From: Modestobacter sp. VKM Ac-2986
Lineage (GTDB): Bacteria; Actinomycetota; Actinomycetes; Mycobacteriales; Geodermatophilaceae
Reading direction: 5' to 3'
Length of the DNA: 64,000 nt
Assembly (NCBI RefSeq): GCF_026967795.1
Contig: NZ_JAPVBH010000005.1
Coordinates: forward strand, 1-64,000
The position numbers and the translations under genes were made by a program. Of the stretch, positions 11,955 to 32,641 are shown piece by piece. Each line of letters begins with the position of its first letter. The first letter of the stretch is position 1. The notes under the pieces were generated by a model. That model saw only the letters and a program-made list of their open reading frames with translations, had not been told where the DNA came from and did no database searches.

Positions 11955-13052
11955 ATGTCTGCAGCAACCGACCACCTGACCACCTCCGACGACGGCGCTC
12001 TCGCCGCCACGGCCCGCGATCGAGTGCACGGGGACCCCCTGCGGGGGCGACGTGCGCGATCGGCCGGCGTGCGCGCTGCTGTCCCGGGCTCGTCCCACAG
12101 CGACGACGGCCAGCACCAGACCGACCTCGTCCGGGAGATGCCACCCCTGGGACTCGACGTCCGCGAGGACGGCGACGCCACCCCCGCCCTCCCGGCCGAT
12201 CGCACCGCTGACGTCCCGGTGGGCACGTCGGCGACGCATGCCCCGGCCCGGCTCTCCCGGCGCTCGCCTCGGGTCAGCGTGGTCATCCCCACCTACAACG
12301 AGGCGAGGAACCTGCCGCACGTGCTGCCCCGGCTCCCCGCGGACCTGCACGAGGTCATCCTGGTCGACGGGCGCAGCGTCGACGACACCGTCGAGGTGGC
12401 TCGTGCGCTCCGGTCCGACGTGAAGATCGTCATGCAGAACCGGATCGGCAAGGGCAACGCCATGGCCTGCGGCTTCGCTGCGGTGACCGGCGACATCGTC
12501 GTCATGCTCGATGCCGACGGTTCGGCCGACCCGGAGGAGATCAGCCGCTTCGTCGCGGCCCTCGTCGGAGGAGCCGACTTCGCCAAGGGCAGCCGCTTCA
12601 CGGCCGGTGGGGGCAGCAGCGACATCACCGCCGTGCGCGCCTGGGGCAACCGGTGGCTCAACCGCACGGCGAACGTGCTGTTCGGTACCCGCTACACCGA
12701 CCTCTGCTACGGCTACAACGCCTTCTGGCGGCACTGCCTGGACTCCCTCGAGCTCGACCCCAGGGCCGGGGACCGGGGCGGCAAGCAGTGGGGTGACGGC
12801 TTCGAGATCGAGACCATCATCAACACCCGGATCGCGAAGGCCCGGCTGGTGATCGCCGAGGTGCCGAGCTACGAGCTGTCCCGGATCCACGGGCAGAGCA
12901 ACCTGAACACCTGGCGGGACGGCTTCCGGGTGCTGGGTGCGCTCGTCGTCGAGCGGCTCAGCAGCACGGGCCGCAGGGCGCGCCCCCAGCCCCGCACGGC
13001 CGCGCCCGTCGCTGTCCCGGGTGTCGGGCGCGGGGGTGATCGCGTGGCCTGA
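11955..13052 (+). CDS. GT2 glycosyltransferase, polyprenyl-phosphate-sugar synthase-like (copy 1 of 3)
   Basis: The GT-A domain starts around residue 103 with VSVVIPTYNEARNLPHVLP. EVILVDGRSVDDT, GKGNAMACGFAA and the metal-binding MLDADGSADP follow. The family resembles dolichol-phosphate mannose synthases but lacks a C-terminal membrane anchor, so it probably makes a lipid-linked sugar or extends the repeat unit. Copies 2 (14314) and 3 (31279) are closely similar. This copy has an extra N-terminal stretch of about 90 low-complexity residues absent from the others. ATG 11955 has AAAGG 6 bases upstream. GTG 12219 would give a protein the size of the paralogues. It lacks the conserved leader seen before copies 2 and 3. 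Confidence 0.88.
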   Translation: MSAATDHLTTSDDGALAATARDRVHGDPLRGRRARSAGVRAAVPGSSHSDDGQHQTDLVREMPPLGLDVREDGDATPALPADRTADVPVGTSATHAPARLSRRSPRVSVVIPTYNEARNLPHVLPRLPADLHEVILVDGRSVDDTVEVARALRSDVKIVMQNRIGKGNAMACGFAAVTGDIVVMLDADGSADPEEISRFVAALVGGADFAKGSRFTAGGGSSDITAVRAWGNRWLNRTANVLFGTRYTDLCYGYNAFWRHCLDSLELDPRAGDRGGKQWGDGFEIETIINTRIAKARLVIAEVPSYELSRIHGQSNLNTWRDGFRVLGALVVERLSSTGRRARPQPRTAAPVAVPGVGRGGDRVA

Positions 13053-13678: not shown

Positions 13679-14317
13679 TCAGGAGCTGTGGACGCCACCC
13701 GGCTCGGTCTCCCGGCGCCGGCCGACCAGCACGGCAGCGGCCGTGACGACCACCAGTGCCGCGACGTAGACCGCGTAGGGGAGGAGGACGCCACCGCCGT
13801 GGACCGGCCAGGCCAGTGTCACCCCGGGACCGGTGACCAGGTCGCGGGTCAGGTGGAGCACCAGGCCGAGCGCGAGTCCGGCCGCCGGTGCCCGCAGCCG
13901 GGGGACCGCTGTCAGCGCGAGCAGCAGCACGACGGTGGCGAGTGAGTGGGTGACCGGTCGGCCGTCGGGCGCGGGGATCAGGTGCCAGTGCAGGTACAGC
14001 GGCACGTGGTCGACGTCGATGGCGATCGCGGCGAACAGCGCCCAGCCCTGCACCGTGGTGCTGAGCCGGAAGCCGAGCGCGGCGAGGACGAGCCACGCGG
14101 TGAGCAGGTGCGCCGGCCAGTCCAGCAGCCCGACCACTGCCGTCGGCCAGGTGCGCAGTGACGCCACGACGTCCAGCAACCCGATCGTGACGAGTGCGGC
14201 CACCAGCACCGCGGCGGGCGGCCGGAGTCCCGATGCCCAGGGCAGTCGCAGTCCGCGGCCGGCGGCCCAGACCCCGCCGGCCCAGCCTCCGTCGGACTGC
14301 GGTGCCCTGTTGCTCAT
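13679..14317 (-). CDS. Membrane-bound metal-dependent hydrolase-like protein (YdjM/DUF457 type)
   Basis: A 212-residue protein with about five to six transmembrane segments. Motifs of the YdjM/DUF457 family are present: AIDVDHVPLYLHWH, a following VTHSLATVV, and LHLTRDLVTGPG. These His/Asp residues are thought to form a metal site facing the membrane. The ATG at 14317 overlaps the stop of the GT2 gene by 4 bases (ATGA), so the two are translationally coupled and probably act on the same glycan or lipid carrier. Enzymatic activity is not proven for the family. Confidence 0.72.
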   Translation of the reverse strand: MSNRAPQSDGGWAGGVWAAGRGLRLPWASGLRPPAAVLVAALVTIGLLDVVASLRTWPTAVVGLLDWPAHLLTAWLVLAALGFRLSTTVQGWALFAAIAIDVDHVPLYLHWHLIPAPDGRPVTHSLATVVLLLALTAVPRLRAPAAGLALGLVLHLTRDLVTGPGVTLAWPVHGGGVLLPYAVYVAALVVVTAAAVLVGRRRETEPGGVHSS

Positions 14318-15216
14318 GCGCTCCGGATCCCCGCCGCGTCGGGCGCCGTCGGCAGGTCCAGGACGGCGTCCGGCACCTGTGCTGCGGGCCGCAGGTCCTG
14401 CGACGGCAGAGCTGCGACCGGCATCCGGCGCAGCGCCGCTGCCTGGGTGCGGCCCTGCCCGTTGACCCGCTCGATCCCCAGTGCCCTGAGCACGCGGAAC
14501 CCGTCCCTCCAGGTGTTGAGGTTGCTCTGACCGTGGATGCGCTCGAACTCGAAGCTGGGGACCTCGACGATGTGCAACCGGGCCTTGGCGACCCGGGTGT
14601 TGATGATCGTCTCGATCTCGAAGCCGTCGCCCCACAGCTTGCCAGTGCTGCCGCGGTCGCTCGCATCGAGGGCGAGGACGTCCAGGCAGCGGGTCCAGAA
14701 GGCGTTGTACCCGTAGCAGAGGTCGGTGTACCGGGTGCCGAAGAGCAGGTTGGCCGCGTGGTTGAGCCAGCGGTTGCCCCAGGCACGGACCCGGGTGATG
14801 TCGGAGCTGCCACCGCCGTTGGCGAACCGGGTGCCCTTGGCGAAGTCCGCACCGCCGACGAGGGCCTCGACGAACCGGGGGATCTCCCGGGGGTCCGCGG
14901 ACCCGTCGGCGTCGAGCATGACGATGACGTCACCGGTGACGGCGGCGAAGCCGCAGGCCATCGCGTTGCCCTTGCCCTTGCGGTTCTGCCGCACGATCCG
15001 CACGTCGGACCGCAGCGACCGGGCGACCTCGATGGTGTCGTCGACGCTCCGGCCGTCCACCACGATCACCTCGTGCACGTCCTGGGGCAGCAGTGCGAAC
15101 ACGTGCGGGAGGTTCTTGGCCTCGTTGAAGGTCGGGATGACCACGCTCACCCGCGGGGCGGAGGACCGGTGTCCTGCGGGGGAGACGGAGAACTCGGCAG
15201 AGGTTCGGCGACGCAT
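14314..15216 (-). CDS. GT2 glycosyltransferase, polyprenyl-phosphate-sugar synthase-like (copy 2 of 3)
   Basis: A 300-residue GT-A enzyme: VSVVIPTFNEAKNLPHVFAL near residue 24, the metal-binding MLDADGSADP, and the conserved tail IHGQSNLNTWRDGFRVLRAL. It is very close to copy 3 (31279). One 76-base tract (14877-14952) is identical to 31857-31932. It overlaps the downstream DUF457-like gene by ATGA. Upstream is a conserved structured leader (15248-15305) also found before copy 3. It is divergent from the A-PCP-TE synthetase at 15714. Likely role: transfer of a nucleotide-activated sugar onto polyprenyl phosphate or a lipid-linked intermediate. The sugar is unknown. Confidence 0.9.
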   Translation of the reverse strand: MRRRTSAEFSVSPAGHRSSAPRVSVVIPTFNEAKNLPHVFALLPQDVHEVIVVDGRSVDDTIEVARSLRSDVRIVRQNRKGKGNAMACGFAAVTGDVIVMLDADGSADPREIPRFVEALVGGADFAKGTRFANGGGSSDITRVRAWGNRWLNHAANLLFGTRYTDLCYGYNAFWTRCLDVLALDASDRGSTGKLWGDGFEIETIINTRVAKARLHIVEVPSFEFERIHGQSNLNTWRDGFRVLRALGIERVNGQGRTQAAALRRMPVAALPSQDLRPAAQVPDAVLDLPTAPDAAGIRSA

Positions 15217-15247
15217 GTGTGTTCAGTCCTGTCCAAGAGGGACGGGT

Positions 15248-15305
15248 CCGGTTTCGCCTCTGCTCACCGCTGGGCTCTGGCGACCAAGAGGGCGCCCAGC
15301 GGGTC
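15248..15305 (-). promoter_or_regulatory. Conserved structured 5' leader (element A), candidate cis-regulatory RNA
   Basis: On the minus strand, 31 bases before the GT2 start. An 8-bp stem CGCTGGGC/GCCCAGCG (15294-15301 with 15268-15275) encloses an 18-base loop holding GGTCGCC (15279-15285). Downstream GGCGAAACC (15250-15258) is complementary to that loop: TCGCC with GGCGA, and GGT with ACC across an AA bulge. An H-type pseudoknot is therefore possible. The same 58-base layout is present at 32215-32272 with a compensatory change in the stem. It matches no riboswitch class I can recognise. Confidence 0.55.
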
Positions 15306-15713
15306 ATCGCTCACCCGTGCATGTGCTCGTTCGTGTGTTCGTGCTGTGACCGGACAGCGGTTCATCCGGGCACCGTGTCCGTGGTGCTGATCCCTTCTCG
15401 GCCGGTCCGCGACGGCGGGAGCGGGGTGGGGCCGACTCGGCAGCCACACCTCGCACGAGCCGCGGACCTGCTCACGCTCGGTGAGGACTGAGCCGCTGGT
15501 GCACCAGTAAGGTAAGTCGGCAGAGCCCGTCTGGAGCCGCTCTGTCACCAACAGTGGTGGTCGGATCACCCGATGAGGTGACAGTGCGACCGTTGGGGGG
15601 CTGCCGGCTGCGAGTGGTCGGAGGATCAGACCGGTGACGTCCGGCGACCCGGTGCCCGGGGACGGGTGAGGGCGCAGGACCTGGCGGTGCGCTGCACGCG
15701 GAGGTGGCGCCCG
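15306..15713. other. Divergent promoter region between GT2 copy 2 and synthetase 1
   Basis: No gene is supported. It contains small inverted repeats near the middle, for example CACCA/TGGTG and TCACC/GGTGA around 15546-15584. A strong ribosome site, GGAGGTGG, lies at its right end for the synthetase. Confidence 0.4.
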
Positions 15714-18362
15714 ATGAGAGCCCCTACGACGGAGGACGACGACGCAGTGGACCAGAGCGCTCTCGGATCTGCCCTGACGGCGGTCGACCTGGACCGGACG
15801 GGCAGCGTCCTGGACCGGCTGGACGAGGTGGCCGCACGGCTGCCCGACCAGCTGGCGGTGACCTCGGCGGACGGCGACCTCAGCTGGGCCGAGCTGCACC
15901 ACCGCACCTGCCTGCTGGCCGACGAGCTGGACGCCGTGCTGCCCGGCACGGCCGACGGTGGTGGGCCGGCGGGCGACCGGGAGAACCGGCGGCCCATCGG
16001 CATCTTCGCCGCCCAGGGGACGGACGCGGTGGCCGCGGCCCTGGCCGTCGTGGCCACCGGCCGGCCCTTCGTGCTGCTCGACGTCCTCCTCCCGGACGCC
16101 CGGGTCGGGCAGCTGGCCCAGCAGGCCGGGGTGACCGTCGTCCTGGCCGACGACCTCAGGCGCCCGCGGGCGGCGGGGCTGCCGGGCGTGGAGGTGGTGC
16201 GCGGGCTGGTGCCGTGCGCCGGTGACGTCGACGCGGGCACCTCGCGCGCCGGGCGGCTGTCCCGGCCGGATGTCCGGGCCGGGGACTCCGTCTCGATCAT
16301 CTTCACCTCGGGCACCACCGGCGCCCCCAAGGGCATCGACTACCTGCACCGCACGGTGCTGGCGAACACGGTCATCGGCCGGGACTGGATGCGCTTCGGC
16401 CCGACCGACCGGGTCGCGCTGGTGATGCCCTGGGCGTTCGCGGCCGGTCAGGAGCTCATGCTCATGGCGCTGCTCAACGGGGCCACGCTGTGTGTCCGCG
16501 ACCCCCGCGAGCACGGCATCCGCGACCTCGCCGCCTGGTTGGCGGCCAGCCGGGTCACCACCCTGCACGGCACCCCGTCCTTGCTGCGCGCACTCGTCGC
16601 GGTCCTCCCACCCGACCAGGTGCTGCCCTCGTTGCGGCTGGTGACCACGGCCGGCGAGCGGGTGCACGGCCGGGACGTCACCGCCGTGCGCCAGCACCTC
16701 GACGCGCAGGCCAGCGTGCTCAACTACCTGGGTTCCTCGGAGACCGGCATCTACAGCCGTTACGAGGTCGCCGCCGGCGACCCGGCTCCCGACGGGGTGG
16801 TCCCCGCCGGGGCCGGCGGCCGGCTGCGCGAGATCACCGTCCTGGACGACGCCGGCCGCCCGGTGTCCGCCGGTGAGACCGGCTTCCTCCACGTCACCTC
16901 GGGGCACCTGTCCGGTGGGTACTGGGACGACCCCGAGCAGACGGCGGCGCGTTTCTCACCGCTGCCGGACGGCCGCACCCGGTACGCCTCCGGCGACCGG
17001 GCCCGGATCGACGCCGACGGCGTCCTGCACGTGCTGGGACGCGGCGACGACGCCGTGAAGATCCGCGGCTACCAGGTGGAGCCGGCCGAGGTCGAGGTCG
17101 CGCTCCGGGCGCTCCCGGAGGTGCGGGACGCCGTCGTCCGGGCCCTGCCCGACGGTGAGGGTCGACGCCTGGTGGCCTGGGTGGTGCCCGACCCGCGGCA
17201 GCGCCCGCCGTCGACCGTGGGCGTCCGGACCGAGCTGGCCCGGACCCTGCCCGACTGGATGGTGCCCCGCGACGTCGTCCTGATGACCGAACTGCCGCGC
17301 AACACCGGCGGCAAGGTCGACGTGGCGGCGCTGCCGGCTCCCGCCCCCCGCCCGGCGCCGGTGCCGCCGGTGACGGACGCCGAGCGCCGGCTGGAACAGC
17401 TGTGGGCGCCGCTGCTGCGGGTGGAGCACGTGGGCCGGACGGAGAGCTTCACCGCCCTGGGCGGCGACTCGCTGTCGGTCGAGGAGATGCTCGCCGCCCT
17501 GCCGGAGCTGTTCGGCACCTCCCTGACCGCCGGTGACCTCGCCGAGGACCCGACGCTGGCCGGGTTCGCCGCCCGGCTCGAGCGTGGGGCTCCCGAGCGG
17601 AGCCGCCGGTCGCGGCAGACGGTGCTCCGGCTGCGTGGACCGGGCAGCCGCCCCCCGGTGTTCTGCTTCGCCGGCGCCGGTGGGGCGGCGGCTGCCTTCG
17701 CCGACCTCGCCGAGCTGCTCGGCCCCGACCAGCCGGTCACCGCCTTCCAGGCCCGCGGCTTCGAGGGCCGGGGCGTCCCGGACTGGAGCGTGTCGCGCAC
17801 GGCCCGGCGGCACCTGGAGGACCTCGAGCGGCTGGCCCCGGAGGGGCCGGTGGTGCTCGTCGGGCACTCGCTGGGAGGGCTGGTGGCCCTGAAGGTCGCG
17901 CACCTCCTGGCGGCGCGGGGTCGCGTGGTGCCGCTGGTGGTGCTGCTGGACACCTACCTCCCACCGGCCGCCCGGCCCGCGGGTACGGGACACCACGCGC
18001 TCCCGGAGGTGGCTCCGGCCGCGGGCCGCCGGGACCTCTGGCGGACGCGCGTGCAGGTGGCGCTTGCCGGCATCTGGCGGCACGCCGACCCTGCGGTGCA
18101 CCGCGAGGTCTTCCACCAGCACGGCGTCCGCGTCGCCCACCTGCACCGGCCGACCGCGTGGCCCGGGCGCACCGTGGTGTTCATGTCCAACGAGAACCTG
18201 GACGAGCCGGAGTGGTGGGACCTCGTCCTCACCGGCGAGCACGAGGTGCGCCAGGTCGACTGCGACCACCTGGCGATGCTGCGGCGGCCCTACGTGGACG
18301 GTGTCGCCGAGCAGTTGGCCCCGGCGGTGGAGGCGCTGCGCACCGGGCGGTCCGCCGGCTGA
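15714..18362 (+). CDS. NRPS-like A-PCP-TE synthetase (copy 1)
   Basis: An 882-residue enzyme with adenylation (about 20-540), carrier (about 555-630) and thioesterase (about 645-880) domains, and no condensation domain. A-domain cores: TSGTTGAPKG from residue 198, YLGSSETG, YASGDRARID, KIRGYQVEPAEVE, and Lys534 in NTGGKVD. The phosphopantetheine Ser586 is in LGGDSLS. The TE nucleophile Ser719 is in GHSLGG, with an Asp in LLDTYLP and His in CDHLAMLRRPYV. Core A4 reads MPWAFAAGQE, so the Asp that binds the alpha-amino group is replaced by Ala. The substrate is probably not an ordinary amino acid; an aryl, keto or fatty acid is more likely. ATG 15714 follows GGAGGTGG. Its setting among GT genes suggests it makes or transfers an acyl group for the glycan. 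Confidence 0.88.
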   Translation: MRAPTTEDDDAVDQSALGSALTAVDLDRTGSVLDRLDEVAARLPDQLAVTSADGDLSWAELHHRTCLLADELDAVLPGTADGGGPAGDRENRRPIGIFAAQGTDAVAAALAVVATGRPFVLLDVLLPDARVGQLAQQAGVTVVLADDLRRPRAAGLPGVEVVRGLVPCAGDVDAGTSRAGRLSRPDVRAGDSVSIIFTSGTTGAPKGIDYLHRTVLANTVIGRDWMRFGPTDRVALVMPWAFAAGQELMLMALLNGATLCVRDPREHGIRDLAAWLAASRVTTLHGTPSLLRALVAVLPPDQVLPSLRLVTTAGERVHGRDVTAVRQHLDAQASVLNYLGSSETGIYSRYEVAAGDPAPDGVVPAGAGGRLREITVLDDAGRPVSAGETGFLHVTSGHLSGGYWDDPEQTAARFSPLPDGRTRYASGDRARIDADGVLHVLGRGDDAVKIRGYQVEPAEVEVALRALPEVRDAVVRALPDGEGRRLVAWVVPDPRQRPPSTVGVRTELARTLPDWMVPRDVVLMTELPRNTGGKVDVAALPAPAPRPAPVPPVTDAERRLEQLWAPLLRVEHVGRTESFTALGGDSLSVEEMLAALPELFGTSLTAGDLAEDPTLAGFAARLERGAPERSRRSRQTVLRLRGPGSRPPVFCFAGAGGAAAAFADLAELLGPDQPVTAFQARGFEGRGVPDWSVSRTARRHLEDLERLAPEGPVVLVGHSLGGLVALKVAHLLAARGRVVPLVVLLDTYLPPAARPAGTGHHALPEVAPAAGRRDLWRTRVQVALAGIWRHADPAVHREVFHQHGVRVAHLHRPTAWPGRTVVFMSNENLDEPEWWDLVLTGEHEVRQVDCDHLAMLRRPYVDGVAEQLAPAVEALRTGRSAG

Positions 18363-28477: not shown

Positions 28478-31150
28478 GTGACTGGTGGTGCGACCCGGCG
28501 TCGGCGTGTCACTGTGGGTCGACCCCTTCCCGGCTCGACGACCACGGAGGCCACCATCGTCGCTCGCCCACGCTCCGTCGCTCCCGTCGCCACGTCACCG
28601 GGTGAGGCCGTGCCGCTGCCACCGCTCGTCGTGCCCGGTCCGCACTCCGGTGTCCTCGACCGGTTGGCCGAGCTCGCCGCAGCCCTGCCCGACCAGCCGG
28701 CCCTCGAGGCATACGACGGCGAGCTGACCTTCGCCGAGCTCTACGCCCGCGTGCGGGTCCTGGCCACCGAGCTGGCCCGCCGCGACGCCGCGGACGGCGG
28801 TGCCCGCCGTCCGGTCGGGCTGTACGCCGAACAGGGCACCGACTCCCTCGCGGCCTTCCTCGCCATCACCGCCAGTGGCTGCCCGTGCGTGACCCTCGAC
28901 GTGATGCTCCCCGACGCCCGGCTGGCCCAGGTGGTGCAGCTGGCCGGGGTGTCGACCGTCCTCGCCGAACCCGCACGGCAGGAGCGGGCGGCTGCGCTCC
29001 CGGGCGTCACGGACGTGCTCGGCCTGACCCCGACCACCGCCGGGCCCGTCGAGGACGCCGACGTGCCGGTCACGACGCCGGACGACGGGGCGTCCCTGGT
29101 GTTCACCTCCGGGAGCACCGGTGCGCCCAAGGGGGTGCTCTACACCCAGCGGTTCATCCTGAGCTGTGGGGCGCTCGGCCCGGAGGAGTTCCGGGTGACC
29201 CCGGCCGACCGGCTCGCGTTCGTCATGCCGATCGCGTTCGCCGCCGGTCAGATCACCTTCTGGGACGCCCTGCTCAACGGTGCGACCGTCTGCGCCCGGG
29301 ACCCGCGGGTGCGCGGTCTCCCCGGACTGCCCGGCTGGCTGGACGAGGTGCGCCCCACACTGCTGGTCAGCGCCCCCGCGCTGGTCCGAGCCCTGCACGC
29401 GACGCTCCCGGCCGGGGCCGTCCTCCCGTACCTCCGGCTGGTGGTGACCGGCGGTGAGAAGGTCAACGGCCGTGACGTCACCGCCTTCCGCACGCACCTG
29501 ACCCCCGAGGCCAGCTTCATGAACTGGATGGGCTCGTCGGAGACGGGGTCGCTGATGACCTTCGAGATCCGGTCGACCGACCCCGTCCCCTCGGGTGTGG
29601 TGCCCGGGGGCCGGGCGGTCTCGCTGCGCGAGCTGGAGGTGCTCGACGAGGACCGTCAGCCGGTCGCGCCCGGTGAGGTGGGCGGCCTGTACGTCCGGTC
29701 GGCGTACCTCGCGGCCGGTTACTGGGGCGCGCCGGAGCTGACCGCGGCGAGGTTCGAGCGCATGCCCGACGGGCGGACCCGGTACGGGACCGGGGACCGG
29801 GCGCGCATCGGCGAGGACGGTGTCGTGCACCTCCTCGGTCGCGCCGACGACTCGGTGAAGATCCGGGGCTACCTCGTCGAGCCCGGTGAGGTGGAGGCGG
29901 CGCTGCTGACCCTGTCCGAGGTCAAGGACTCCGTCGTCCGCGCGGTCACCTCGGACGACGGCGATCCCCGGCTGGTCGCCTGGGTGGTGCCCGACCCGGC
30001 GCAGCGCACCGCCTCGCCCGCCCTCGTGCGGGCGGGCGCCTCGGTGAAGCTGCCGGAGTGGATGGTGCCGCGGGACGTGGTGCTGCTGGACGCCCTGCCG
30101 CGCACCGAGCGGGGCAAGGTCGACTTCGCCGCGCTGCCGCCGGTCCCGCCGCGGCCCCGGCCGGTGCCGCCGGCGACCACGGCGGAGACGTCGCTGGCGG
30201 CGATCTGGGCACCGATCCTGCACCTGGACGAGGTCGGCCGGGACGAGAGCTTCACCGCGCTCGGCGGCGACTCGCTGGCCGTGGAGGAGATGCTCGCCGC
30301 GGTCACGGGGCGGCTGGGCGTCTCGCTGACGACCGCGGACCTCGCGGAGCACCCGACGCTGAGCGCCTTCGCCAGGCTGGTCGACGAGTCCTCGAGCGGT
30401 GGTCGGCCCCGAGGGCGCGCCGGCACGCTGGTGGAGTTCAGGACGACGGGCAGCCGACCGCCGCTGTTCTGCTTCGCCGGGGCCGGTGGCGCCGCCGCCG
30501 CCTTCGAGGCGCTCGCCGGGGCGATGGGCCCCGAGCAGCCCTTCTACGGCCTCCAGGTCCACGGCTTCGAGAACCGGGGCATCCCGGACTGGACCGTCGG
30601 CCGGGCGGCCCGTCGCTACCTCGAGGTGATCGAGCAGGTCGCTCCCGACGGGCCGGTCGTGCTGGTCGGCCACTCACTCGGCGGGCTCTTCGCCCTGGCG
30701 GTGGCGCACCTGCTCCAGGAGCGCGGGCGCCAGGTCGTCGACGTCGTCCTGCTGGACACCTACCTCCCGCTGCCGGCACGGGGTGAGGGCGCACCGCGGC
30801 AGCTGGGGCCGGCCGCCGAGCCGCTCACCCCGCGCGAGCTGTGGCGGACCCGCTTCCAGGTGGTGACGGCCGGCATGATCCGCCGCGCCCCCGAGGTGCA
30901 GAAGGAGGTCTTCCACCAGCACGGTGCCCGGGTGGCCCGCTTCCACCGGCCCCGGCCATGGGCGGGACGGGCCCTCCTCGTGATGTCCAACGAGAACCCC
31001 GACCTGGCCGCCTGGTGGGACGCACTCCTGGTCGGGGACCACGAGATCCGCAGCATCGACGCCGACCACCTGGCGATGCTGCGCCGGCCCTACGTCGACG
31101 GCATCGCCGAGCTCATCACCGCCGACGTCGACAGGTTCGTCGACAGCTGA
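28478..31150 (+). CDS. NRPS-like A-PCP-TE synthetase (copy 2)
   Basis: About 890 residues with the same A-PCP-TE layout as the gene at 15714. TSGSTGAPKG starts near residue 210, WMGSSETG is core A5, and Lys547 lies in RGKVD. The carrier Ser599 is in LGGDSLA, and the TE Ser733 in GHSLGG with Asp in LLDTYLP and His in ADHLAML. Core A4 is MPIAFAAGQI, so the Asp expected for alpha-amino acids is again missing. The pair is moderately similar, so substrates may differ. The start is uncertain: GTG 28478 has no ribosome site. A clear GGAGG at 28546-28550 sits 5 bases before an in-frame ATC (28556), not an ATG. It is convergent with GT2 copy 3. Confidence 0.86.
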   Translation: MTGGATRRRRVTVGRPLPGSTTTEATIVARPRSVAPVATSPGEAVPLPPLVVPGPHSGVLDRLAELAAALPDQPALEAYDGELTFAELYARVRVLATELARRDAADGGARRPVGLYAEQGTDSLAAFLAITASGCPCVTLDVMLPDARLAQVVQLAGVSTVLAEPARQERAAALPGVTDVLGLTPTTAGPVEDADVPVTTPDDGASLVFTSGSTGAPKGVLYTQRFILSCGALGPEEFRVTPADRLAFVMPIAFAAGQITFWDALLNGATVCARDPRVRGLPGLPGWLDEVRPTLLVSAPALVRALHATLPAGAVLPYLRLVVTGGEKVNGRDVTAFRTHLTPEASFMNWMGSSETGSLMTFEIRSTDPVPSGVVPGGRAVSLRELEVLDEDRQPVAPGEVGGLYVRSAYLAAGYWGAPELTAARFERMPDGRTRYGTGDRARIGEDGVVHLLGRADDSVKIRGYLVEPGEVEAALLTLSEVKDSVVRAVTSDDGDPRLVAWVVPDPAQRTASPALVRAGASVKLPEWMVPRDVVLLDALPRTERGKVDFAALPPVPPRPRPVPPATTAETSLAAIWAPILHLDEVGRDESFTALGGDSLAVEEMLAAVTGRLGVSLTTADLAEHPTLSAFARLVDESSSGGRPRGRAGTLVEFRTTGSRPPLFCFAGAGGAAAAFEALAGAMGPEQPFYGLQVHGFENRGIPDWTVGRAARRYLEVIEQVAPDGPVVLVGHSLGGLFALAVAHLLQERGRQVVDVVLLDTYLPLPARGEGAPRQLGPAAEPLTPRELWRTRFQVVTAGMIRRAPEVQKEVFHQHGARVARFHRPRPWAGRALLVMSNENPDLAAWWDALLVGDHEIRSIDADHLAMLRRPYVDGIAELITADVDRFVDS

Positions 31151-31278: not shown

Positions 31279-32187
31279 TCACGCCGTGCGGATGTCGACG
31301 ACCTCCGCGAGGGCCTCGGCGGGACCGCCGTCCCGGTCGGGGGCCGACCGGCGCGGGACGGCGACCGCCGTCGGCACGGCCAGCTGCTCGGCAGCTGCTG
31401 CTGCGGCGGTCGGGCGGCGCACGGCGTTCCTGCCCTTGTCGTTGAGCCGCTCGACGCCGAGGGCGCGCAGCACGCGGAGACCGTCCCGCCAGGTGTTGAG
31501 GTTGCTCTGACCGTGGATGCGCTCGAACTCGAAGCTGGGCACCTCGACGATGCGGAGCCGGGCCTTCGCGACCCGGGTGTTGATGAGCGTCTCGATCTCG
31601 AACCCGTCGCCCCAGAGCTTTTGCTCCCGGGAGCGGCCCTCGGCGTCGAGCTCGAGGACGTCGAGGCAGTAGGTCCAGAAGGCGTTGTACCCGTAGCAGA
31701 GGTCGGTGTAGCGGGTGCCGAACAGCACGTTGGCCGCGCGGTTGAGCCAGCGGTTGCCCCAGGCGCGAGTCCGGGTGATGTCGGCGCTGCCGCCGCCGTT
31801 GGCGAACCGGGTGCCCTTGGCGAAGTCCGCGCCGGCGGTGAGCGCAGCGACGAACTGGGGGATCTCCCGGGGGTCCGCGGACCCGTCGGCGTCGAGCATG
31901 ACGATGACGTCACCGGTGACGGCGGCGAAGCCACAGGCCATCGCGTTGCCCTTGCCGATGCGGTTCTGCAGCACCACCGTGACGTCGGGGCGCAGCGAGC
32001 GGGCCACCTCGATGGTGTCGTCGACGCTCCGGCCGTCGACCACGATGACCTGGTGCACGTCCGGGGGGATGAGCGCGAAGACGTGCGGCAGGTTCTTCGC
32101 CTCGTTGTACGTGGGGATCACCACGCTCACCCGCGGCGCGGTCGTCGACTGCGGGGCACGGGCGTGGAGTTCTACGACGTTCGGCAT
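31279..32187 (-). CDS. GT2 glycosyltransferase, polyprenyl-phosphate-sugar synthase-like (copy 3 of 3)
   Basis: A 302-residue GT-A enzyme nearly superimposable on copy 2: VSVVIPTYNEAKNLPHVFAL, MLDADGSADP, the GNRWLNRAANVLFG block, and IHGQSNLNTWRDGLRVLRAL. The C-terminal 45 residues diverge. The ATG at 32187 was chosen because GGAGAGG lies 7 bases upstream and the protein then begins at the same place as copy 2. A longer open frame to 32277 would run through the conserved leader. Likely function is transfer of a sugar to a polyprenyl carrier or early intermediate. Sharp nucleotide identity with copy 2 suggests recent duplication or gene conversion. Confidence 0.9.
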   Translation of the reverse strand: MPNVVELHARAPQSTTAPRVSVVIPTYNEAKNLPHVFALIPPDVHQVIVVDGRSVDDTIEVARSLRPDVTVVLQNRIGKGNAMACGFAAVTGDVIVMLDADGSADPREIPQFVAALTAGADFAKGTRFANGGGSADITRTRAWGNRWLNRAANVLFGTRYTDLCYGYNAFWTYCLDVLELDAEGRSREQKLWGDGFEIETLINTRVAKARLRIVEVPSFEFERIHGQSNLNTWRDGLRVLRALGVERLNDKGRNAVRRPTAAAAAAEQLAVPTAVAVPRRSAPDRDGGPAEALAEVVDIRTA

Positions 32188-32214
32188 ACGAGTCCCTCTC
32201 CGAGGATGAAGGGC

Positions 32215-32272
32215 CCGGTTTCGCCTCTGCTCGCCGCCGGGCAAAGGCGACCAGTTCAGCGCCCGGCAGGTC
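32215..32272 (-). promoter_or_regulatory. Conserved structured 5' leader (element B), candidate cis-regulatory RNA
   Basis: On the minus strand, 27 bases before the GT2 copy 3 start. The stem TGCCGGGC/GCCCGGCG (32261-32268 with 32235-32242) has a C-G pair where element A (15248-15305) has U-A, and a U-G closing pair in place of C-G. The apical loop sequences differ, but GGTCGCC in the loop and GAGCAGAGGCGAAACCGG after the stem are identical to element A. Conservation of pairing with loop divergence supports a selected RNA structure. Confidence 0.55.
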
Positions 32273-32641
32273 ATCACGCACCCTGTGAACAGGCCTCAGG
32301 GGAGGAGGGAGCTGCGCGGGGGACATCGACGTCCCTGCCGCCACCGCCGTCGACCGCGTCGTCGCCACCGGCGCTCTGACTCTCCGTGACCTCAGGCCCA
32401 CTCCTTCATACCGAAGGGGGTACCCACTGTCCACCGGGGGAGGGTCACTGTGGCGCACGACATGGACCGCCCTCGTGGCGCAGCGCACACGGTGGTGACC
32501 GTGCGGCAGAGCACACACCCGGATTGAGGAGTCCGTTCGACGGCACGTGGCTCGTGTCGTCCCGCGGGTGTTGTACTGCAGAGACCCGCTGGGGCCGCCG
32601 TCGACGAGGTCGGCACGTCCGCTGACCGGGTCCGCGAGAGG
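32273..32641. other. Intergenic region before flippase 2
   Basis: A 369-base gap between divergent genes. No gene or recognised motif. It must contain promoters for GT2 copy 3 (minus) and flippase 2 (plus). Confidence 0.4.

What the first reader, a model, noticed from the sequence alone, without database searches (positions are those of the whole stretch)
15248..15305. Candidate structured RNA leader with a possible pseudoknot upstream of a GT2 gene
An 8-bp stem encloses a loop with GGTCGCC, and a downstream GGCGAAACC can pair with that loop, giving an H-type pseudoknot 31 bases before the start codon. The downstream arm lies close to the ribosome site, so folding could affect translation. 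I could not match it to the c-di-GMP, c-di-AMP or other riboswitch consensuses I know.
Basis: partly seen in the sequence, partly recalled or inferred. Interest (0 to 1): 0.75.

Follow-up and report, generated by a model that had tools for sequence, protein, structure and literature searches.

The report
c-di-GMP riboswitch before glycosyltransferase gene
The folded RNA in front of this sugar-transferase gene is a known kind of genetic switch, an RNA sensor of the bacterial signal c-di-GMP, and it probably lets the cell make more of the enzyme when that signal is high.

Summary
On the minus strand, 31 bases before the ATG of a GT2 gene (14314-15216), a 9-bp stem's loop pairs with a downstream arm to form a pseudoknot. 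It is not an unknown RNA: Rfam identifies 15237-15323 (-) as a c-di-GMP-II-GAG riboswitch (RF03169, 45.7 bits, cut-off 40). A second copy (32205-32290, -, 33.6 bits, below cut-off) precedes a paralogous GT2 gene; a third in the same genome precedes a BcsA-like GT2 gene. RF03169 was found in 31 of 112 genomes of the taxonomic family and 44 of 298 of the order, with changes on both sides in every stem and in two of seven pseudoknot pairs. Best mechanism: c-di-GMP stabilises P1, whose 3' strand otherwise pairs with the ribosome site, giving a translational ON switch. Class identity is firm; the ON direction is inferred, and covariation in the window's own subgroup does not support it. Beyond the Rfam label: in 112 of 113 collected elements two pocket letters are either U+A (window copies, as in canonical c-di-GMP-II) or C+G, never mixed (one unreadable), and 18 of 113 precede bldD.

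The parts
15237..15323 (-). c-di-GMP-II-GAG riboswitch aptamer (RF03169), copy 1
   Evidence: cmscan 45.7 bits, gathering 40, E 9.6e-6 for the window; E 1.5e-7 for the genome
15313..15318 (-). P1 5' strand ACGGGT
   Evidence: pairs with 15242-15247; the 4 P1 pairs counted all change on both sides across relatives, 87.8% of cells paired
15242..15247 (-). P1 3' strand ACCCGT; possible alternative partner of the ribosome site
15294..15302 (-). P2 5' strand, 9 bp
   Evidence: sequence; 9 of 9 P2 pairs with changes on both sides
15267..15275 (-). P2 3' strand
   Evidence: as above
15279..15285 (-). pseudoknot 5' arm GGTCGCC
   Evidence: compensatory GGTCACC/GGTGAGACC and GGTCGCT/AGCGAAACC in relatives
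15250..15258 (-). pseudoknot 3' arm GGCGAAACC with two-base bulge; followed by a G that would be G73 in c-di-GMP-II numbering (register recalled)
15226..15234 (-). ribosome-site region GGACAGGAC; 15228-15229 and 15231-15234 can pair with 15245-15246 and 15240-15243 (anti-SD hairpin)
   Evidence: RNA folding; inferred
14314..15216 (-). GT2 glycosyltransferase gene (300 aa) under the riboswitch
   Evidence: Pfam PF00535 4.6e-28
32205..32290 (-). second riboswitch copy
   Evidence: RF03169 33.6 bits, below the gathering score 40; 76% identical over 89 bases to copy 1
31279..32187 (-). paralogous GT2 gene (302 aa), start 17 bases after the second copy
   Evidence: Pfam PF00535 4.1e-25; gap 17

Best explanation
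This is a class II c-di-GMP riboswitch (RF03169 scaffold) in the 5' leader of a GT2 glycosyltransferase mRNA. Shown by sequence comparison: the fold (P1, P2 and the pseudoknot), its conservation and its fixed place just before the ribosome site. Inferred: c-di-GMP binds beside the pseudoknot and stabilises P1. When c-di-GMP is scarce, the 3' strand of P1 pairs instead with the GGACAGG ribosome-site region and blocks translation. When c-di-GMP is high, P1 closes, the site is freed and the GT2 enzyme is made: a translational ON switch. My estimates by step: class II c-di-GMP riboswitch 0.95; ligand c-di-GMP 0.88; translational rather than transcriptional 0.8; ON rather than OFF 0.6. The single confidence below is for the class-plus-translation claim.
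For: Rfam match above cut-off. Changes on both sides in all four helices including the pseudoknot. 26 of 26 GT2-linked elements of the family end 14-21 bases before the start. The genome has 28 GGDEF matches (27 over cut-off) and 21 EAL matches, so it very probably makes and degrades c-di-GMP. Of 113 collected elements (109 distinct sequences), 32 precede GT2 and 4 BcsA-like genes and 18 precede bldD; BldD is a known c-di-GMP receptor (PMC12564702, passages). The window copies carry U37, A61, A69, A70 and G73 like canonical c-di-GMP-II (27 of 27 aligned GT2-type elements; contact list from PMC7288161, passage; register recalled). For the window leader, P1+P2a+P2 (-26.5) and P2+anti-SD hairpin (-26.4 kcal/mol) are equal before the pseudoknot or ligand is counted, and mean P(unpaired) of GGACAGGAC rises from 0.27 to 0.61 when the aptamer is enforced. 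It rises in 15 of 21 GT2 leaders (mean 0.32 to 0.45). In 23 leaders that are neither bldD nor family GT2, P1 3' strand x ribosome site pairs better natively than with swapped partners (1 of 1000 swaps as good; over all 56 leaders, 24 of 1000).
Against: In the window's own subgroup (21 of 26 GT2 leaders, 5 near-duplicates dropped) the swap test for the anti-SD pairing is negative: 373 of 1000 swaps as good, 129 of 500 and, for the hairpin form, 440 of 500. It is also negative for the 12 bldD leaders (348 of 1000) and weak for BcsA plus the other-family GT2 (64 of 1000). Folding of the tail is only marginally better than dinucleotide shuffles (28 of 200 sets as good). Accessibility falls or does not rise in 6 of 21 leaders. 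The swap test does not remove composition or relatedness. The second copy is below the Rfam cut-off. No binding or expression data exist here.
Confidence: 0.7

Rival explanations
1. Same riboswitch, opposite sign: the ligand-bound pseudoknot and P1, ending a few bases from the ribosome site, shut the ribosome out (translational OFF switch).
For: In the window copy P1 ends about 7-11 bases before the ribosome-site letters; the anti-SD pairing is not supported by covariation in the GT2 subgroup; accessibility does not rise in 6 of 21 leaders.
Against: Anti-SD pairing is supported in the 23 more diverse leaders and the site opens when the aptamer is enforced in 15 of 21. c-di-GMP generally promotes polysaccharide production (general knowledge).
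Confidence: 0.25
2. The RF03169 scaffold senses a different ligand than c-di-GMP (another cyclic dinucleotide).
For: RF03169 is named as a variant; a probable extra pseudoknot pair changes the geometry next to the bulge (register recalled). The ligand was not tested here, and the founding paper is not in the library.
Against: Window copies keep the canonical U37, A61, A69, A70 and G73 letters. Partner genes (bldD, BcsA-like, GT2) fit c-di-GMP, and the genome is rich in GGDEF/EAL.
Confidence: 0.1
3. Chance structure in GC-rich intergenic DNA without function.
For: GC-rich sequence folds easily; the leader tail alone folds only marginally better than shuffles.
Against: Rfam E 1.5e-7 per genome, invariant core and compensatory changes, fixed distance to the start in 26 of 26.
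Confidence: 0.01

Closest known systems
c-di-GMP-II-GAG riboswitch (Rfam RF03169)
   Same: Whole-length match, above cut-off for copy 1; P1, P2, pseudoknot, conserved GAGC-AG and G after the arm.
   Different: Pocket letters: window copies have U before GGUC and A as second bulge base (GGCGAAACC), whereas 66 of 113 elements collected here have C and G; one base shorter between GAGC and AG than the Rfam consensus.
c-di-GMP-II riboswitch (Rfam RF01786; C. acetobutylicum structure 3Q3Z)
   Same: Same architecture and the same letters at U37, A61, A69, A70, C71, C72, G73 (the 3Q3Z register is recalled).
   Different: RF03169 is the better clan match; in the own-genome RF01786 search only the BcsA-linked copy appeared, below cut-off (150 of 291 candidates scored). 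By the recalled register, one extra U-A pair in the pseudoknot and G-C in place of C68-G40.

Membership tests
RF03169 c-di-GMP-II-GAG | covariance-model score at or above the gathering score | tested here: met
   copy 1: 45.7 vs 40. Copy 2: 33.6, not met on its own
RF03169 c-di-GMP-II-GAG | P1, P2 and loop-to-3'-arm pseudoknot with conserved pairing | tested here: met
   all four helices show changes on both sides; in the pseudoknot 2 of 7 pairs
RF03169 c-di-GMP-II-GAG | C before GGUC and GAGACC arm, as in the Rfam consensus CGGuCGCC / GGCGAGACCG (whether this defines the family is my reading) | tested here: not met
   window copies have U and GAAACC; 46 of 113 collected elements have U and A. 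The score nevertheless passes for copy 1, so I file it as a member with the U/A pocket
RF03169 c-di-GMP-II-GAG | binds c-di-GMP | not testable with these tools
   needs in-line probing or ITC
RF01786 c-di-GMP-II | covariance-model score at or above 53.5 | tested here: inconclusive
   one search listed only the third copy (30.1 bits, below cut-off) but scored 150 of 291 candidates; RF03169 was the best clan match and lower clan matches were left out
RF01786 c-di-GMP-II | ligand-contact letters U37, A61, A69, A70, C71, C72, G73 | tested here: met
   27 of 27 GT2-type elements incl. both window copies; contact list from PMC7288161 (passage), which also names A13, A14, G39, U60, C68, A74, of which U60, C68 and A74 do not map cleanly; the register rests on a recalled 3Q3Z sequence

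The most novel reading that the evidence does not exclude
The RF03169 scaffold comes in two pocket subtypes that swap a tertiary ligand-pocket pair as a unit (U37 with A, or C37 with G, never mixed in the 112 of 113 elements that could be read), possibly tuning affinity or specificity. Both coexist in one genome, where they form a c-di-GMP translational regulon of glycosyltransferase genes; in relatives the regulon reaches secreted proteins and the c-di-GMP receptor gene bldD itself, a riboswitch-receptor loop.
Probability: 0.35. Interest if true: 0.6.

Novelty: new member of a known kind. Interest (0 to 1): 0.38.

Why it matters
It moves an apparently orphan RNA into a known class and predicts direct c-di-GMP control of two GT2 genes and a BcsA-like gene in a genome inferred to be Modestobacter. 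The coupled pocket letters give a simple mutational test of how this class reads its ligand. The bldD-linked copies suggest that in some actinobacteria c-di-GMP may act on both the synthesis and the activity of its own receptor.

Tried and rejected
Transcriptional terminator: no terminator-like site in 15150-15720, but shuffles of that region give none either, so this is weak. Promoter scan uninformative. Alternative pairing of the P1 5' strand with the P2 5' strand: 2 of 1000 swaps as good in the GT2 group, but it would break a 9-bp stem, seems to rest on a few lineages, and the real P1 itself lacks support in the same test (225 of 1000); kept only as a lead. gntR-DTE match in L001: 28 bits against cut-off 63.6, chance. 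G091:C60 match: 30.9 bits, below cut-off, no pseudoknot seen, judged false and dropped. Third GT2 gene 11955-13052 (+): no element beside it.

Literature: ten searches. The name c-di-GMP-II-GAG (or its sister -GCG) turned up in two papers, which list it among covariance models (PMC9943018, PMC12452182; passages). PMC7266159, PMC12564702, PMC7288161 and PMC3764141 were read in passages only (the last held nothing relevant). One search found 27 papers with BldD, riboswitch and c-di-GMP (20 listed); I read passages of two of those listed, so I cannot say that a bldD riboswitch is unpublished. The founding paper of the GAG variant is not held.

Full report
What was checked. P2 is CCGCTGGGC/GCCCAGCGG (9 bp); its loop carries GGTCGCC, and GGCGAAACC downstream pairs with it, leaving two bulged bases.

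Identity. Rfam lists three matches in the window at gathering scores: two tRNAs and c-di-GMP-II-GAG (RF03169) at 15237-15323 (-), 45.7 bits against 40; the full-length alignment is. A DNA search of the own genome found a second copy, 76% identical over 89 bases, at 32195-32283; RF03169 scores it 33.6, below cut-off. A third copy lies outside the window at C11:342721-342832 (+), 56.8 bits, 266 bases before an ORF of 600 aa with PF13632 and PF13641 GT2 domains that looks BcsA-like (my label). The other nine of twelve matches score 18.3 bits or less and count as chance; in that search, at E <= 10, 7 of 14 control genomes also had a match, none over the cut-off.

Spread. RF03169 was found in 31 of 112 genomes of the family at E <= 0.001 (28 over the cut-off) and in 44 of 298 of the order at E <= 1e-4 (37 over the cut-off); these larger searches use stricter filters that lose weak matches, and none of the 14 control genomes had a match in them. 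The genus is inferred to be Modestobacter: two same-genus genomes have contigs whose lengths (45342, 53792) equal those of Modestobacter excelsi and M. muralis records. Of the 80 best homologous GT2 loci in named genomes (a capped list), 9 have the element directly upstream (64-99 bits): four Modestobacter, four Geodermatophilus and one Frankiales MAG. Three weaker matches (16-20 bits) lie elsewhere and 68 loci have none.

Context. Of the 39 matches, one (G091:C60) was rejected. Of the remaining 38, 26 precede the GT2 gene, and all 26 end 14-21 bases before its start and encode the GT2 motif. Over 113 elements collected (39 + 25 + 50 matches less the rejected one; 109 distinct sequences; not every match was fetched), downstream genes by motif are GT2 in 32, bldD in 17, BcsA-like in 4, contig end in 1 and other in 59. 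The contig-end case (L018, window's own family) also starts bldD, making 18, at 32-49 bases from the element; the other 17 are from family f10 genomes. Many of the 'other' begin with signal-peptide-like sequences (by eye). The bldD label rests on Pfam BldD-like_C, E 1.5e-36, for one representative, and its solved-structure matches (2ewt, 4oaz; that these are Streptomyces BldD is recalled). The window's genome has its own bldD homologue (C8:130102-130569, 70% identity); none of its three RF03169 copies lies there. The genome has 28 GGDEF matches (27 over cut-off) and 21 EAL matches.

Structure test. An alignment of 60 matches from 65 loci (58 distinct rows) was scored with P1, P2a, P2 and the pseudoknot: 96.1% of cells paired, 17 of 22 pairs with changes on both sides, covariation score 0.411 against 0.119 shuffled (0 of 500) and at most 0.083 for slid versions. 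The alignment is fitted to P1, P2a and P2 but not to the pseudoknot. In the pseudoknot 3 of 7 pairs never vary, 2 change on both sides (12 and 3 sequences) and 2 depart only by unpaired cells; 7 to 10 rows have gaps there because long loops were misaligned. Counts are sequences, not events.

Pocket. PMC7288161 (passage) lists the 3Q3Z contacts A13, A14, U37, G39, U60, A61, C68, A69, A70, C71, C72, G73 and A74. Mapped with a recalled 3Q3Z sequence, the 27 GT2-type elements (26 of the family plus the Frankiales one) all have U, A, A, A, C, C, G at 37, 61, 69, 70, 71, 72, 73; U60, C68 and A74 are not kept in that register. Read directly from sequence, a strict pattern resolved 105 of 113 elements (U+A 42, C+G 63) and a looser one 112 of 113 (U+A 46, C+G 66); none is mixed, and one (G107_L046) could not be read. 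GT2 genes occur with both forms (29 U+A, 3 C+G). This looks like a coupled tertiary pair, but one old double change would give the same table, and whether the second bulge base is A69 or A70 is not settled. My guess that GAG names bases 69, 70 and 73 comes from no call.

Mechanism. The aptamer ends beside the ribosome site, and no terminator-like site was found (weak, since shuffles give none either), so translational control is favoured. The P1 3' strand can pair with the ribosome site: for the window leader the two states are equal in energy (-26.5 and -26.4 kcal/mol) and the site's mean unpaired probability is 0.27 free and 0.61 with the aptamer enforced. In 21 of 26 GT2 leaders (5 near-duplicates left out) the mean goes from 0.32 to 0.45, up in 15. 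Swap controls (56 of 64 leaders, 8 dropped; start codons of the non-GT2 leaders set by hand): all 56, 24 of 1000 swaps as good; 23 diverse leaders, 1; 16 of these labelled secreted, 3; 7 BcsA plus other-family GT2, 64; family GT2, 373; bldD, 348. Two further tests on the family GT2 leaders were also negative. So strand exchange is supported for part of the family and plausible but unproven for the window copies.

Verdict. What remains of interest is the coupled pocket letters, the paired GT2 paralogues each with its own copy, and the bldD link.

Noticed in passing
L058:1501-1600 and following gene 1642-2127; also L018, L052, L056, L061, L063, L067-L070, L072, L074, L156, L160, L162, L179, L193, L195: RF03169 elements stand 32-49 bases before bldD, a c-di-GMP receptor gene, in 18 of 113 elements: 17 in a second family of the order and one (L018) in the window's own family. 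A riboswitch-receptor loop would be notable.
   Followed up: partly
L165 (G248:C200), L163 and L167 (G152), L159 (G227), L161 (G209), L157 and L194 (G263): Tandem RF03169 copies 19-29 bases apart, often before ORFs with signal-peptide-like starts (by eye), suggesting two-aptamer switches.
   Followed up: no
L003 (G000:C11:342721), L014, L019, L042: BcsA-linked copies have an AGGAG site and a short ORF (4, 19, 55 and 21 codons) right after the aptamer, roughly 120-240 bases before the main ORF; possible leader peptide or coupling.
   Followed up: partly
window 15666-18362 (+) and 28478-31150 (+): Two AMP-binding / carrier / thioesterase proteins of the same domain make-up, one beside each riboswitch-controlled GT2 gene: perhaps a duplicated cassette.
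   Followed up: no
window 11955-13052 (+): A third GT2 gene with the same domains but without the riboswitch.
   Followed up: partly
L170, L177, L187, L191: Some elements precede short secreted proteins whose N-termini resemble SipW/TasA-type matrix proteins (my reading; no family search).
   Followed up: no
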